Shown: positions 44,721 through 55,282 of the stretch, one piece after another | Layout: every line of letters starts with the position of its first letter | How positions within the stretch are numbered: position 1 is the stretch's first letter | NCBI RefSeq assembly: GCF_014836445.1 | Contig: NZ_JACSQV010000002.1 | Location: 435,247 to 499,246 of the forward strand | Direction: 5' to 3' | DNA length: 64,000 nucleotides | Origin: Cellulomonas avistercoris | GTDB lineage: Bacteria > Actinomycetota > Actinomycetes > Actinomycetales > Cellulomonadaceae | Notes under the pieces: generated by a model | Seen by the model: the letters and a program-made list of their open reading frames with translations, nothing else | Told to the model about the DNA's origin: nothing | The model's database searches: none | Position numbers and translations under genes: made by a program

Positions 44721-45956
44721 GTGGAGCCGGTCCACGGCCCGGCGACGGAGCACGGGCTGGAGCAGCACGCCACGCTGACCACGGTCGCGCGGCAGCTGCT
44801 CGACGTGCTCGCCGCGACGCAGGCCGACGTCGACGCGGACGTCGAGGCCCGCGTGGCCGACAACCCCGCGCTCGTGCGCGGGACCCCCCGGCGGTGCCGC
44901 TGGTGCGCCTCGCCGCTGCGCCGCGGCCGGTGCCCGACGTGCAGCGGCTCCGGGGCCGACCTGCGGTCACGCGACCCCGCGGCACCGGCCGACGAGCGCG
45001 ACCGGGTGCGCCTCGACGCGCGCGCCCTGGTCCCGCCGGGTGCCGAGGGTGACGTCGACGCGGCCGTCGCGCTCCTCGACGACCGCGGCCTGCTGCCGCC
45101 CGACGCGCCCGACCCGCCGGCGCCGCGGCTCGCGGCCGCCCTGGCCGCCGTCCGCACCGTCGCACCCCCCGGCACCGCCGAGCGCGGGCTGCACGCGAGC
45201 CTCGTCGCGCAGGCGGGCTGGCACGTGCGGCACGGCGCGCCGGACCTCGTCCTCGTGCTCGTCCGCGACCACCTCGCCCGCATCGGCACCCCCGACCTCG
45301 CGCGGCACGTCGGTGCGTCGCCCGCGGCGCTCGAGGCGGCGATGCACGTCGTGCGGCGCCTGACGCCCGCGCCGCTGCCCCGCGGCGCGTCCGACGGCCC
45401 CGCGACGCCGCCGGACGTCGTCGTGCGTGAGGTCGACGGGCGGCTCGTCGTCGACGCGCTCGGGCCGGACGACCTCGGGATCGGGCTCGACGACGAGCTC
45501 ACCGCCCTGCCGCTCGAGGACGCCGCCGCCGCGTGGCGCGACGCCCACGTCGCGGCCGCCCGGCAGCTCGTCTACCTGCTGGGACGGCGCGCCGACACGC
45601 TGCGTCGCGTCACCGCGGTGGCCGTCGACGTGCAGGAGGGGTTCGTGCGGCACGGGCCGTCGGCGCACCGGCCCCTGACCCGCGCGCAGGTGGCCGCGCG
45701 CCTGGGGCTGCACGCGTCGACCGTCTCGCGCGTCGTCGCCGGGGCCGTCGTCGCCCTGCCGGGCCCCCGCGTGCTGCCGCTCGCCGACCTGTTCGGCACG
45801 TCGCACGCGGCGCGCGACGCGGTCGCGGCCCTGTTCGCGTCCGACGACCCGCCGGCCACCGACGCCGAGGCGGCCGAGCGCCTCGCGGCCCGCGGAATCC
45901 GGGTGGCCCGCCGCACCGTGGCCAAGTACCGCGCGGCCGCGTCCACCGCGCCGTGA
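44721..45956 (+). CDS. rpoN: RNA polymerase sigma-54 factor (RpoN)
   Basis: A 411-residue sigma-54. The N-terminal activator-interacting region reads 'TTVARQLLDVLAATQADVDADVEARVADNPAL' (about 20-51). A Cys4 cluster (Cys59, 62, 71, 74; CxxC-x8-CxxC) sits where most homologues have an acidic linker. The C-terminus has the DNA-binding HTH 'LTRAQVAARLGLHASTVSRVVAG' and the RpoN box ARRTVAKYR (396-404), which reads the -24 element. Sigma-54 is generally absent from actinobacteria. A GAFTGA activator gene and a -24/-12 promoter lie within 11 kb. The GTG start at 44721 has a weak ribosome binding site. Confidence 0.9.
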   Translation: MEPVHGPATEHGLEQHATLTTVARQLLDVLAATQADVDADVEARVADNPALVRGTPRRCRWCASPLRRGRCPTCSGSGADLRSRDPAAPADERDRVRLDARALVPPGAEGDVDAAVALLDDRGLLPPDAPDPPAPRLAAALAAVRTVAPPGTAERGLHASLVAQAGWHVRHGAPDLVLVLVRDHLARIGTPDLARHVGASPAALEAAMHVVRRLTPAPLPRGASDGPATPPDVVVREVDGRLVVDALGPDDLGIGLDDELTALPLEDAAAAWRDAHVAAARQLVYLLGRRADTLRRVTAVAVDVQEGFVRHGPSAHRPLTRAQVAARLGLHASTVSRVVAGAVVALPGPRVLPLADLFGTSHAARDAVAALFASDDPPATDAEAAERLAARGIRVARRTVAKYRAAASTAP

Positions 45957-45961
45957 GCCGT

Positions 45962-45994
45962 GCGCCCGGGCCGTGAGCCGGGCACCCGGGGCGC
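45962..45994. terminator. Hairpin between rpoN and the convergent hypothetical gene
   Basis: GCGCCCGGG (45962-45970) pairs with CCCGGGGCGC (45985-45994) with one bulged base, five bases after the rpoN stop and just before the end of the opposing gene. Confidence 0.45.
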
Positions 45995-46001
45995 GGTGCG
46001 C

Positions 46002-53227: not shown

Positions 53228-53237
53228 GGAGACCGAC

Positions 53238-53828
53238 ATGTCGAGCATCATGATCGAGCCCGGGACGATGCTGCCGGCGCCGCCGCTGTCGACGAGGCCG
53301 GCGCCCCGGTACGCGGGGCTCGGGTTCGCCGAGGTGAAGCCGCACAACGTCCGCGGCATCCTCGCCGGGCTGGCGAGCATCCAGAAGCACCGGCTCGCGG
53401 CGGCGCAGCCGTACACGCAGGCGTTCCTGCTCACGTACCGCCACCAGCCCGGCGACCCCGCACCGCGTGCCGTCGTGCCGTACCTGCTGGTGCCGGGCGC
53501 GCGCACCACGGCACCGGCCCGCCCGAAGGACAAGAACGTCGTGGGGTGGTTGGGCACGCTCGGCGACTGGTACGCGCTGAGCCCCGCGCCCCTGCCCCTG
53601 CCCGCGCACCCCGAACCGCGGTGGGGCACGGACGTCGGGCCGGTCGTGCGCGGGTCGATGGTCGAGCCGCTGGTCAGGTACGCGTTCTTCCGGTTCTCGG
53701 ACTACCGACGGGCCAAGGAGGACATCACGCTGCGCAAGCAGCCGCACCAGCCCGGAGCCGACGTGGCCTGGAAGGAGATGGCGGAGTACCTCTACGAGCT
53801 CGCGTCCGAGCTGGGGTCGGTGGGCTGA
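53238..53828 (+). CDS. Hypothetical protein, last gene of the sigma-54 operon
   Basis: A 196-residue soluble protein, unrecognised. Notable segments are 'LGFAEVKPHNVRGILAGLASIQKHRLAA', 'AFLLTYRHQPGDP' and 'VRYAFFRFSDYRRAKEDITLRKQPHQP'. Basic and aromatic residues are frequent. It follows the amidohydrolase by 10 bp with GAGGAG before the ATG. Its last 37 bases overlap the 3' end of the opposing activator gene. Confidence 0.8.
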   Translation: MSSIMIEPGTMLPAPPLSTRPAPRYAGLGFAEVKPHNVRGILAGLASIQKHRLAAAQPYTQAFLLTYRHQPGDPAPRAVVPYLLVPGARTTAPARPKDKNVVGWLGTLGDWYALSPAPLPLPAHPEPRWGTDVGPVVRGSMVEPLVRYAFFRFSDYRRAKEDITLRKQPHQPGADVAWKEMAEYLYELASELGSVG

Positions 53829-55282
53829 GGACGGGCCTGCGCCGCCGCGCGGTAGTCGAGCGCGCGGCGGCTCACGCCGAGCAGCCGGGCGGCGGCGACG
53901 GTGCCGCCGCCCACGTCGAGGGCGACGCGCGTGGCCACGTCGGCCGTGCGGGCCTTGAGCTCCTGCAGGCCGACGCCCGCGCTCAGCGCGCCCCGCACCG
54001 CGCTCTCGAGCCCGGACTCCCACGGGGTGCGGGCGGTGAGGGCCGTCGGGGGCGGCGCGACGGGCGCGGTGACGGGCGGCGCGGTGACGGGCGGCGCGGT
54101 GACGTGCGGCGCGGTCACGGTCCGCACGGGACGGTCCTCGGGCGGCAGGTCGCCCGGGGTCACGGGACCGTCGCCGACGTGCCGCGCGGCCACGCGCGCC
54201 GCGAGCTGCCGCAGCTCGCGCACGTTGCCGGGCCAGTCGTGGCCGCGCAGCGCGTCCGCGACCTCGCGCGACACCTCCGGGGCGTCCGCGACGTCGTCGC
54301 CGGCCTCCACCGACGGCCGGCGGCGTGCCGCGGCTGCCGCGTCGCGGCCGGGCCGCTGCTCGGCGAGGAAGTGCCGGAACAGGGGCAGCACGTCGTCGGC
54401 GCGCTCGCGCAGCGGCGGGACCCGGAGCGTCGTGGCGGCGAGCCGGTGGTAGAGGTCCGCGCGGAACCCGTCGGCCCGCAGGTCGCGGTGGGTCGCGGCG
54501 ACGAGCCGGAAGTCGGTCCGGCGCCGCCGCGTGCCGCCGACGGTCTGGTAGGTGCCCTCCTGCACGACGCGCAGCAGCGCGGCCTGCAGCGACGCAGGCA
54601 GCTCACCGACCTCGTCGAGCAGGAGCGTGCCGCCGTCGGCGCGCGCGAACGCCCCCTCGTGGGCCGTCGTCGCACCCGTGAACGCGCCCTTCTCGTGACC
54701 GAAGAACTCGCTGCCCGAGAGCGTCGGCACGACGGTCGTGCAGTCGAGCAGGACGAGCTCGTGCTCGCGTCGCCGCAGGTCCACGCGGTGCACGATGTGC
54801 GCCGCGACCTCCTTGCCGACGCCCGTCTCCCCCAGCAGCAGCACGGGCGCCGTCGACCAGCGCGCCACCTCCACGAGGTCGCGCAGGAAGAGCCGCCAGG
54901 CCGACGACGAGCCGATCGCCCCCGCGCGCCGGGCCTCCGCACGGACGAGCTCGTCGACGTCCTGCCACCGGCGCAGCCGGTCGAGCACGGGCCGCAGGTC
55001 GTCGCCGGCGAGGTGCACGACGTCCGCCGCCCCGCACGCGAGCAGCGACCAGGGGTCGACGTCGACCCCGGGCGCGAGGGCCACGAGCACCCGGCCGGGG
55101 CGTTCCGCGAGCCGCGCGGGATCGGGTGCGGCCTGCGGGTCGGTCAGCAGCACCACGCCCGGCTCGTCGGGTGCGACCGGCCGTCCGTCGGCGTCCGCCG
55201 CGTCGGCGTCGCACAGGCCCGCCGCGGTCAGCCGGGCGCGCGTCGCGGGGCCGCAGGGCGCTGCGACACGGAACCACGCCAT
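53792..55282 (-). CDS. Sigma-54 dependent transcriptional activator (AAA+, GAFTGA)
   Basis: A 496-residue enhancer-binding protein. Residues 1-110 form a pseudo-receiver-like domain without a phosphorylatable Asp signature. The AAA+ domain follows: Walker A 'GETGVGKE' (151-158), the sigma-54 contacting GAFTGA (199-204), Walker B 'GGTLLLDEVGE' (218-227) and 'LVAATHRDL'/'GHDWPGNVREL'. A VTAPPVTAPP-type repeat linker precedes the Fis-type HTH 'GGGTVAAARLLGVSRRALDYRAA'. ATG 55282. It should remodel the holoenzyme containing the nearby sigma-54 at the -24/-12 promoter of the operon it faces. The signal it senses is unknown. Confidence 0.9.
   Translation of the reverse strand: MAWFRVAAPCGPATRARLTAAGLCDADAADADGRPVAPDEPGVVLLTDPQAAPDPARLAERPGRVLVALAPGVDVDPWSLLACGAADVVHLAGDDLRPVLDRLRRWQDVDELVRAEARRAGAIGSSSAWRLFLRDLVEVARWSTAPVLLLGETGVGKEVAAHIVHRVDLRRREHELVLLDCTTVVPTLSGSEFFGHEKGAFTGATTAHEGAFARADGGTLLLDEVGELPASLQAALLRVVQEGTYQTVGGTRRRRTDFRLVAATHRDLRADGFRADLYHRLAATTLRVPPLRERADDVLPLFRHFLAEQRPGRDAAAAARRRPSVEAGDDVADAPEVSREVADALRGHDWPGNVRELRQLAARVAARHVGDGPVTPGDLPPEDRPVRTVTAPHVTAPPVTAPPVTAPVAPPPTALTARTPWESGLESAVRGALSAGVGLQELKARTADVATRVALDVGGGTVAAARLLGVSRRALDYRAAAQARPQPTDPSSDASS
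54068..54112. repeat. Three tandem 15-nt repeats in the activator linker
   Basis: GGTGACGGGCGGCGC is repeated at 54068, 54083 and (one change) 54098. It encodes the VTAPP-type linker between the AAA+ and HTH domains of the activator. In-frame unit, so length may vary between strains. Confidence 0.8.

What the first reader, a model, noticed from the sequence alone, without database searches (positions are those of the whole stretch)
44721..55282. A complete sigma-54 regulon in an actinobacterium
An RpoN gene with intact RpoN box, a GAFTGA AAA+ activator, a -24/-12 promoter and an activator-site palindrome all lie in 11 kb around one seven-gene operon. Sigma-54 is generally reported as absent from actinobacteria, so this looks like a self-contained sigma-54 circuit, either transferred or retained, that drives one dedicated product. 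I do not know the product. If the pattern recurs in relatives it would be a new regulatory and functional system.
Basis: partly seen in the sequence, partly recalled or inferred. Interest (0 to 1): 0.95.

Follow-up and report, generated by a model that had tools for sequence, protein, structure and literature searches.

The report
Self-contained sigma-54 cassette in actinobacteria
Some actinobacteria (Cellulomonas, Arthrobacter, Kribbella and others), a group reported to have no working sigma-54 gene switch, carry a compact gene unit with its own sigma-54 factor, its activator and the matching DNA sites beside one seven-gene operon, which the pair likely switches on and which likely makes a protein-delivery or toxin system.

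Summary
The window (a Cellulomonas-like actinobacterium) carries an RpoN gene, seven tightly packed genes and a convergent GAFTGA activator. Upstream of the operon lie a near-consensus -24/-12 promoter and two palindromes 20 bp apart. The unit recurs: in 118 relatives the same 8 genomes hold RpoN and the close homologue of operon gene g3; in a class-wide sample of 394 the same 3 do. RpoN and g3 diverge in step (Mantel r 0.97, 15 pairs). The promoter is found upstream of g1 in 15 of 15 loci read and a palindrome in 14 of 15, including Ensifer, Rhizobium and Paraburkholderia loci that have the activator and operon but no RpoN nearby. The genome has one RpoN, one strong activator and one strict promoter outside predicted genes. 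The cassette RpoN forms a separate branch, mostly with a Cys4 motif after Region I. Caveats: canonical RpoN exists in other classes of the phylum (15 of 396 genomes), and the product is unproven. A variable last gene (lysozyme, amidase, GIY-YIG, restriction-fold-like) and an M48-like g3 suggest effector delivery, an inference. A 2025 paper says Actinomycetota lack functional RpoN; two strains it set aside have homologues of this operon's genes.

The parts
44721..45956 (+). rpoN, sigma-54 factor of the cassette type (411 aa)
   Evidence: PF04552 E 6.4e-24, PF04963 E 5.3e-9; profile vs RNAP-sigma54 structures E 7e-56
44895..44942 (+). Cys4 motif CxxC-x8-CxxC after Region I (predicted zinc ribbon)
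   Evidence: C59, C62, C71, C74 invariant in 9 of 9 aligned cassette RpoNs; no two-pair Cys4 in the 14 other-class actinobacterial RpoNs that could be read of 15 loci; absent in the G690 cassette RpoN
45906..45932 (+). RpoN box ARRTVAKYR
46692..46705 (.). activator palindrome 1 (GGAAGCGGGCTTCG)
   Evidence: 20 bp from palindrome 2
46711..46726 (.). activator palindrome 2 (GCGAACGGCCCTTCGC)
   Evidence: strict form at 2 places in 4.17 Mb, the other inside a predicted ORF
46757..46772 (+). -24/-12 promoter TGGCACGGAACGTGCA
   Evidence: a match in 15 of 15 loci read
46816..47457 (+). g1: acidic N-terminus, glycine-rich hydrophobic stretch, C-terminal GRWVRRGRNI
   Evidence: no Pfam match
47469..48470 (+). 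g2: paralogue of g1 with WSGESE-type repeats
48467..49837 (+). g3: predicted gluzincin-type metalloprotease, HEVGH (200-204) and ExxAD (244-248)
49849..51372 (+). g4: Ig-like N-terminal domain plus helical C-terminal part, function unknown
   Evidence: 716 homologues among 7997 scored; model and fold comparison
51384..52439 (+). g5: PLP-dependent alpha-oxoamine-synthase-like protein (BioF-like)
   Evidence: PF00155 E 1e-7, TIGR00858 E 4.9e-18, below its cut-off
52436..53227 (+). g6: amidohydrolase-like protein
   Evidence: Paractinoplanes orthologue PF04909 E 6e-17; the window protein itself has only a sub-threshold TatD match, E 0.025
53238..53828 (+). g7: strongly divergent last gene, candidate restriction-fold nuclease effector
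   Evidence: PF15650 Tox-REase-9 in 4 of 9 orthologues at E <= 0.1, best 3e-4; none in the window copy; invariant ExK
53792..55282 (-). act: sigma-54 activator (bEBP) with divergent N-terminal domain
   Evidence: PF00158 E 1.8e-48; the only strong one in the genome
54671..54688 (-). GAFTGA loop of the activator
   Evidence: invariant in 9 of 9

Best explanation
The window holds a compact unit of one sigma-54 gene, one GAFTGA activator gene, two palindromes, a -24/-12 promoter and seven genes, in which the activator is predicted to bind the palindromes and make the sigma-54 RNA polymerase transcribe only this operon. The genome has no other RpoN, which is likely why the unit carries its own; in Ensifer, Rhizobium and Paraburkholderia the same activator and operon occur without an RpoN nearby and would use the host's. 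The operon likely builds an effector-delivery system. In that reading g1 and g2 are acidic, glycine-rich carrier or pore proteins, g3 is a processing metalloprotease, g4 is a scaffold, g5 and g6 are accessory enzymes, and the exchangeable last gene (g7 here) is the effector. Shown: the genes, motifs, synteny, co-occurrence, co-divergence and promoter conservation. Inferred: binding, transcription, sole target, zinc binding, protease activity and delivery.
For: Domain matches. One RpoN in the genome. Same gene order rpoN, g1 to g7, then reversed act, in six Cellulomonas genomes (own included), Pseudarthrobacter, Arthrobacter, Kribbella and Paractinoplanes. RpoN and close g3 in the same 8 of 118 and the same 3 of 394 genomes. 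Promoter in 15 of 15 loci; a palindrome in 13 of 15 stretches, plus Ensifer; paired in 12 of 15, at 20 bp (8) or 41-44 bp (4), which fits about two and four helical turns. In the own genome one strong activator and one strict promoter and palindrome pair outside predicted ORFs. Mantel r 0.974 for RpoN against g3 identities, 15 pairs. Three proteobacterial loci with the activator and operon but no RpoN hit within 12 kb. Cargo slot: PG-binding plus glucosaminidase, PG-binding plus GIY-YIG, Amidase_2, Tox-REase-9-like.
Against: The Pfam AID match is weak (E 0.12). Nothing on transcription, binding or core RNAP was tested. No immunity gene was recognised, which weakens the toxin reading. g7's nuclease match is weak and absent in the window copy. 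g1 and g2 have only weak hits to secretion or tape-measure models (best E 4.8e-4 for g2 in PHROGs). The g3 fold match is within the range of common arrangements. G690 carries a rearranged cassette without g5, g6 or g7 hits, its RpoN lacks the Cys4 motif, and no palindrome was found at its promoter. g5 is not found in the P. phymatum operon nor g6 in the Rhizobium one. Strict promoter and palindrome counts in the genome do not exceed or barely exceed reversed controls (5 vs 20; 2 vs 1 places).
Confidence: 0.72

Rival explanations
1. The circuit is real, but the operon is a biosynthetic pathway: g1 and g2 are precursor peptides or carriers, and g3, g5 and g6 modify them into a small molecule or peptide product.
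For: g5 is alpha-oxoamine-synthase-like and g6 amidohydrolase-like; g1 and g2 share a leader-like ELLExTSExELDxFLG stretch.
Against: g5 or g6 is missing from related operons that keep g1, g3, g4 and act (P. phymatum, Rhizobium; both in G690); the last slot holds lysozyme, amidase and nuclease-type proteins; no transporter or carrier domain was matched in the window operon.
Confidence: 0.22
2. The RpoN-like gene is degenerate and non-functional, as a 2025 survey concluded for actinobacterial RpoN-like genes.
For: Weak AID; PMC12316311 passages: RpoN-like hits of Alloactinosynnema sp. L-07, Modestobacter marinus BC501 and Citricoccus sp. SGAir0253 set aside as not bona fide.
Against: RpoN box, HTH motif, promoter and palindromes conserved across orders; RpoN tracks g3 divergence. 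A g3 homologue of Citricoccus sp. SGAir0253 (P0066) and a g4 homologue of Alloactinosynnema sp. L-07 (P0153) exist, so two of those strains appear to carry the same system; their RpoNs were not read here and Modestobacter was not checked.
Confidence: 0.06
3. A recent transfer of a proteobacterial sigma-54 operon with its RpoN.
For: Related operons with the same activator, promoter and palindromes on Ensifer, Rhizobium and Paraburkholderia replicons; patchy presence and changing chromosomal site within Cellulomonas.
Against: Cassette RpoNs lie on a 42-row branch apart from 23 canonical RpoNs (SH-aLRT 97, quick tree); GC of the region, 75-79%, is within that of the window (71-81%); the three proteobacterial loci read have no RpoN within 12 kb.
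Confidence: 0.12

Closest known systems
Canonical RpoN/sigma-54 with bacterial enhancer-binding proteins (NtrC, NifA, PspF, RtcR class)
   Same: RpoN DBD, CBD and box; GAFTGA AAA+ activator; -24/-12 promoter; paired upstream sites
   Different: RpoN is 66 aa shorter than the 477-aa form in solved structures, has a Cys4 motif after Region I and a weak AID, and appears dedicated to one operon instead of a wide regulon
RtcR and its RNA-repair operon (operon content recalled)
   Same: The activator's AAA+ part is closest to RtcR models (NF038308 E 1.6e-70; PADLOC RtcR-type E 2.3e-72); one activator beside one operon
   Different: Score far below the RtcR equivalog cut-off (238.5 vs 650 bits); roughly the first 110 residues not matched by it; no RNA-repair domain matched in the operon
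Polymorphic toxin systems (PMC3482391: search listing and start of abstract seen)
   Same: Exchangeable toxin-like enzyme in one slot of an otherwise conserved operon
   Different: Effector is a separate gene, no immunity gene recognised, no known trafficking domain matched
M48-type metalloproteases (BepA/YfgC)
   Different: No Pfam peptidase match in any of 30 g3 homologues scanned at E <= 0.1; unrelated helical chains score higher in the same list

Membership tests
Sigma-54 factor (RpoN) | DNA-binding domain and RpoN box | tested here: met
   PF04552 E 6.4e-24, over cut-off; box invariant in 9 of 9 rows apart from one position
Sigma-54 factor (RpoN) | Core-binding domain | tested here: met
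   PF04963 E 5.3e-9, 36.5 bits against cut-off 22.9, over profile positions 62-170 of 185
Sigma-54 factor (RpoN) | Activator-interacting domain (Region I) | tested here: inconclusive
   PF00309 E 0.12, 12.7 bits against cut-off 23.8; some relatives on the same branch do have PF00309 precomputed, such as P0272 and P0275
Sigma-54 factor (RpoN) | Works with core RNAP at -24/-12 promoters | not testable with these tools
   Promoter match in 15 of 15 loci; activity needs experiment
Sigma-54 activator (bEBP) | AAA+ domain with GAFTGA loop | tested here: met
   PF00158 E 1.8e-48; GAFTGA in 9 of 9
Sigma-54 activator (bEBP) | C-terminal DNA-binding helix-turn-helix | tested here: inconclusive
   PF02954 E 0.011, below cut-off, 16 of 42 profile positions
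RtcR | RtcR equivalog score | tested here: not met
   238.5 bits against cut-off 650
M48-like gluzincin metalloprotease (g3) | HExxH plus downstream Glu in ExxxD | tested here: met
   H200, E201, H204, E244, D248 invariant in 30 of 30 rows
M48-like gluzincin metalloprotease (g3) | M48 fold | tested here: inconclusive
Polymorphic toxin system | Exchangeable toxin domains in a conserved context | tested here: inconclusive
   Four kinds of protein in the last slot; toxicity unknown
Polymorphic toxin system | Cognate immunity gene | not tested
   None recognised among the genes scanned; no dedicated search made

The most novel reading that the evidence does not exclude
A portable sigma-54 operating system: across several orders of Actinomycetes a distinct RpoN subfamily, mostly with a zinc ribbon in place of Region II, is kept for one purpose only, to fire a conserved effector-delivery operon that Proteobacteria run with their general RpoN. 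This would be a sigma-54 regulon of a single operon that travels with its own sigma factor, and an uncharacterised secretion or antagonism system shared by two phyla.
Probability: 0.45. Interest if true: 0.92.

Novelty: new variant of a known kind. Interest (0 to 1): 0.84.

Why it matters
Two surveys, one of August 2025, state that Actinobacteria/Actinomycetota lack a functional sigma-54 system, and the later one offers high GC as the reason (PMC3162934, passages; PMC12316311, passages). Here a region of 75-79% GC carries a sigma-54 circuit whose parts and DNA sites are conserved over orders and even between phyla. It is a minimal, natural one-sigma, one-activator, one-operon circuit, useful for orthogonal gene control in actinobacteria, and it makes the question of why this class lost or never had a general sigma-54 directly testable. 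It also points to an unstudied gene family: 4507 g3 relatives among 7997 scored candidates, with no Pfam domain listed for any of the 120 shown.

Tried and rejected
Looked for a known family for the operon proteins in Pfam, NCBIfam and PADLOC (ten proteins each) and PHROGs (the seven operon proteins): no match over a curated cut-off for g1, g2, g3, g4, g6 or g7 of the window. Hits of g1/g2 to tape-measure (E 4.8e-4 and 5.9e-4), TraB and type III translocon models were put down to glycine-rich composition; they are not excluded as distant kin. Profiles of g3, g7 and g1/g2 against solved structures gave nothing below E 0.07. Foldseek gave nothing at E 0.001 for g3 or g4, with only Ig-like domains for g4's first 90 residues. 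M48 proteins other than BepA were not among the 50 VIA rows shown; that list re-ranks Foldseek's own hits only.

Considered contamination: set aside, since the unit lies on a 501-kb contig and recurs in the seven other genomes. Considered other targets: four further strict promoter matches and one further strict palindrome in the genome all lie inside predicted ORFs; looser sites were not scanned. The three other PF00158 matches in the genome exceed Pfam's cut-off (26-33 bits), but this search also rings in 14 of 14 control genomes, among them ones without sigma-54, so they are read as general AAA+ proteins.

Rows dropped before counts: G053 (19.7 bits, below cut-off); G825 (23.4 bits, just over cut-off, no cassette gene in 20 kb) and G606, G705, G767 (below cut-off) (for G825); G416 and G443 (24-27 bits) and G406, G419, G434 (below cut-off). 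Distant g3 hits without RpoN (3, 12) were not counted as cassettes; the six fetched and read (L097-L101, L103) belong to another g3-centred operon type. In one search the palindromes of L013 lie 213-233 bp above its promoter, outside the 30-180 bp asked of the shuffles. Six of the 15 pairs were paired by equal contig length. The tree used 48 of the 120 listed database RpoNs and the quick method.

Papers: searches listed no description of this cassette or of a zinc-ribbon RpoN, and none on RpoN in Actinomycetes beyond PMC3162934 and PMC12316311; the library holds open-licence papers only, and no paper was read whole.
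Full report
What is there. The window is part of a 4.17 Mb genome (G000) on a 501-kb contig. Its closest named RpoN relative is Cellulomonas dongxiuzhuiae (96% identical; order Micrococcales, class Actinomycetes). From 44721 to 55282 lie rpoN (+), seven genes g1-g7 (+, 46816-53828, gaps 10-11 bp or 4-bp overlaps) and the activator gene act (-), whose 3' end overlaps that of g7 by 37 bp. RpoN has PF04552 (E 6.4e-24) and PF04963 (E 5.3e-9) over their cut-offs and a sub-threshold AID (E 0.12); it is the only PF04552 protein of the genome. 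A profile of nine cassette RpoNs matches RNAP-sigma54 structure chains at E 7e-56 over profile positions 115-417. The activator has PF00158 at E 1.8e-48, an AAA lid, an intact GAFTGA loop and a sub-threshold Fis-type HTH; about its first 110 residues match nothing in the scans. The next three PF00158 matches of the genome score 26-33 bits against 168, over Pfam's cut-off but in a search that also rings in all 14 control genomes.

DNA sites. The -24/-12 site TGGCACGGAACGTGCA begins 59 bp before the g1 start. Two palindromes (core GAA-N6-TTC) lie 20 bp apart, 45 and 65 bp further upstream. A -24/-12 match is present in 15 of 15. A palindrome is present in 13 of 15 stretches; Ensifer's two lie beyond the stretch used and were seen, and G690 has none by this pattern. 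Twelve loci have pairs, eight at 20 bp and four at 41-44 bp, about two and four turns of DNA. First-order shuffles of each stretch expect 0.004 or fewer promoter matches, and 0 of 1000 had promoter and palindrome 30-180 bp apart. Six of the 15 loci are from one genus and are not independent. In the genome the strict promoter pattern occurs five times (reversed control 20) and the strict palindrome at two places (control one); so numbers alone show no excess, but the other four promoters and the other palindrome fall inside predicted ORFs. At this stringency the circuit has one target.

Recurrence. PF04552 is over cut-off in 8 of 118 relatives: the own genome, five of the same genus and two of other families of the order. 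All eight carry the cassette: in six Cellulomonas genomes and Pseudarthrobacter the order rpoN, g1-g7, reversed act is complete; in the MAG G085 rpoN and act lie upstream of g1 and the contig ends after g3. A g3 profile in the same 118 genomes gives E below 1e-200 in exactly those eight; three further genomes have distant g3 (about 1e-38) and no RpoN. In 394 genomes sampled over the class, RpoN is in G000, G094 and G690 (a fourth over cut-off, G825, is a 23-bit match with no cassette gene in 20 kb), and g3 at E below 1e-100 in the same three; 12 more have distant g3. If independent, such overlaps would have chance 1.4e-12 and 9.9e-8, but kinship makes them less surprising than that. A two-pattern scan of named genomes for g3 found seven loci (three of them the genomes already met as G055, G085 and G094): five carry the full set, the MAG is cut after g3, and an Arthrobacter nitrophenolicus contig begins inside g2. 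RpoN and g3 identities over 15 pairs correlate at 0.974 (permutation p 1e-4); six of those pairs were matched by equal contig length.

Correction on the phylum. Sampling 396 genomes over the phylum found 15 with strong RpoN (E 1.3e-36 to 1.9e-58), none of this class. Six of these loci were fetched: they have activator-like genes nearby but no hit to g1-g7. So sigma-54 is not absent from the phylum; what is special is the class Actinomycetes, where each of the 9 genomes found by a clear RpoN match carries it in the cassette.

RpoN lineage. In a 65-row quick tree the cassette RpoNs and their nearest database relatives form a 42-row branch (SH-aLRT 97) apart from 23 canonical RpoNs, among them seven from other actinobacterial classes. 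Of the 42, 36 have a Cys4 motif after Region I and 6 do not (G690 among those); the label needs 7 changes on the tree, so it is clustered but not uniform. All nine rows of the cassette alignment have it. A Chloroflexia MAG is in this branch (P0286). This argues against recent import from the proteobacterial or other-class lineages sampled; root and direction of old transfers stay open. Within Cellulomonas presence is patchy and the site varies: four cassettes adjoin gcvP (window, L012, L013, L014); in G064 gcvP and the FtsX-like gene are neighbours and the cassette lies about 6 kb away; no FtsX-like gene was found within 11 kb beyond act in G003, G043 and G046; in Root930 neither gene is in the 20 kb read, which holds only about 1 kb on the activator side.

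Other phylum. Ensifer, Rhizobium and P. phymatum large plasmids carry g1/g2-like genes, g3 (44-52%), g4, act and g5 and/or g6, with no RpoN hit within 12 kb. Their sites follow the same code. P. phymatum has its own RpoN, needed for nif genes (PMC8305402, passage); that of the other two hosts is recalled. Hence the circuit is shared, and the actinobacterial version is the one that brings its sigma factor along.

Literature. PMC3162934 (passages) says Actinobacteria lack the system. PMC12316311 (passages) finds RpoN-like genes in 4 of 173 Actinomycetota, sets three aside as not bona fide and one as misclassified, and proposes GC content as the cause. Two of the three set-aside strains appear in my lists: Citricoccus sp. 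SGAir0253 with a g3 homologue (P0066) and Alloactinosynnema sp. L-07 with a g4 homologue (P0153). Modestobacter was not checked. I found no description of the cassette in eight searches. RpoN of this type is already named sigma-54 factor by some sources, as in C. dongxiuzhuiae.

Noticed in passing
L097, L098, L099, L100, L101, L103: A second, RpoN-free operon type around distant g3 relatives in actinobacteria: large protein, g3-like, small protein, a 370-435 aa protein and a last gene that varies (DUF4056, NlpC/P60, tyrosinase with PG-binding in three of them); several N-termini share an acidic tract with an (E)SPF motif.
   Followed up: partly
L050:2162-16414 (Bradyrhizobium quebecense plasmid): A g3-like gene (7491-8912) near S8/S53 peptidase, patatin, phospholipase D-like, two CHAT proteins and GMC oxidoreductase genes.
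   Followed up: no
L051:1838-6451: A 1537-aa Rhizobium protein joining a GMC oxidoreductase and a patatin domain, some 4 kb upstream of the operon.
   Followed up: no
46002-46643 (-): ORF between rpoN and g1, matched in only two of the eight relatives' loci compared (84% in L012, a fragment in L014); not counted as part of the unit.
   Followed up: partly
47550-47700: g2 carries WSGESE-type acidic repeats; the length of this part differs between relatives.
   Followed up: no
L112:1-6031 (G064): In G064 the FtsX-like gene and gcvP are neighbours, without the cassette that separates them in the window; the cassette lies about 6 kb away.
   Followed up: partly
P0286, P0279, P0291, P0292: Cys4-type RpoNs at the base of the cassette branch, one named as from a Chloroflexia MAG; gene neighbourhood not seen.
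   Followed up: no
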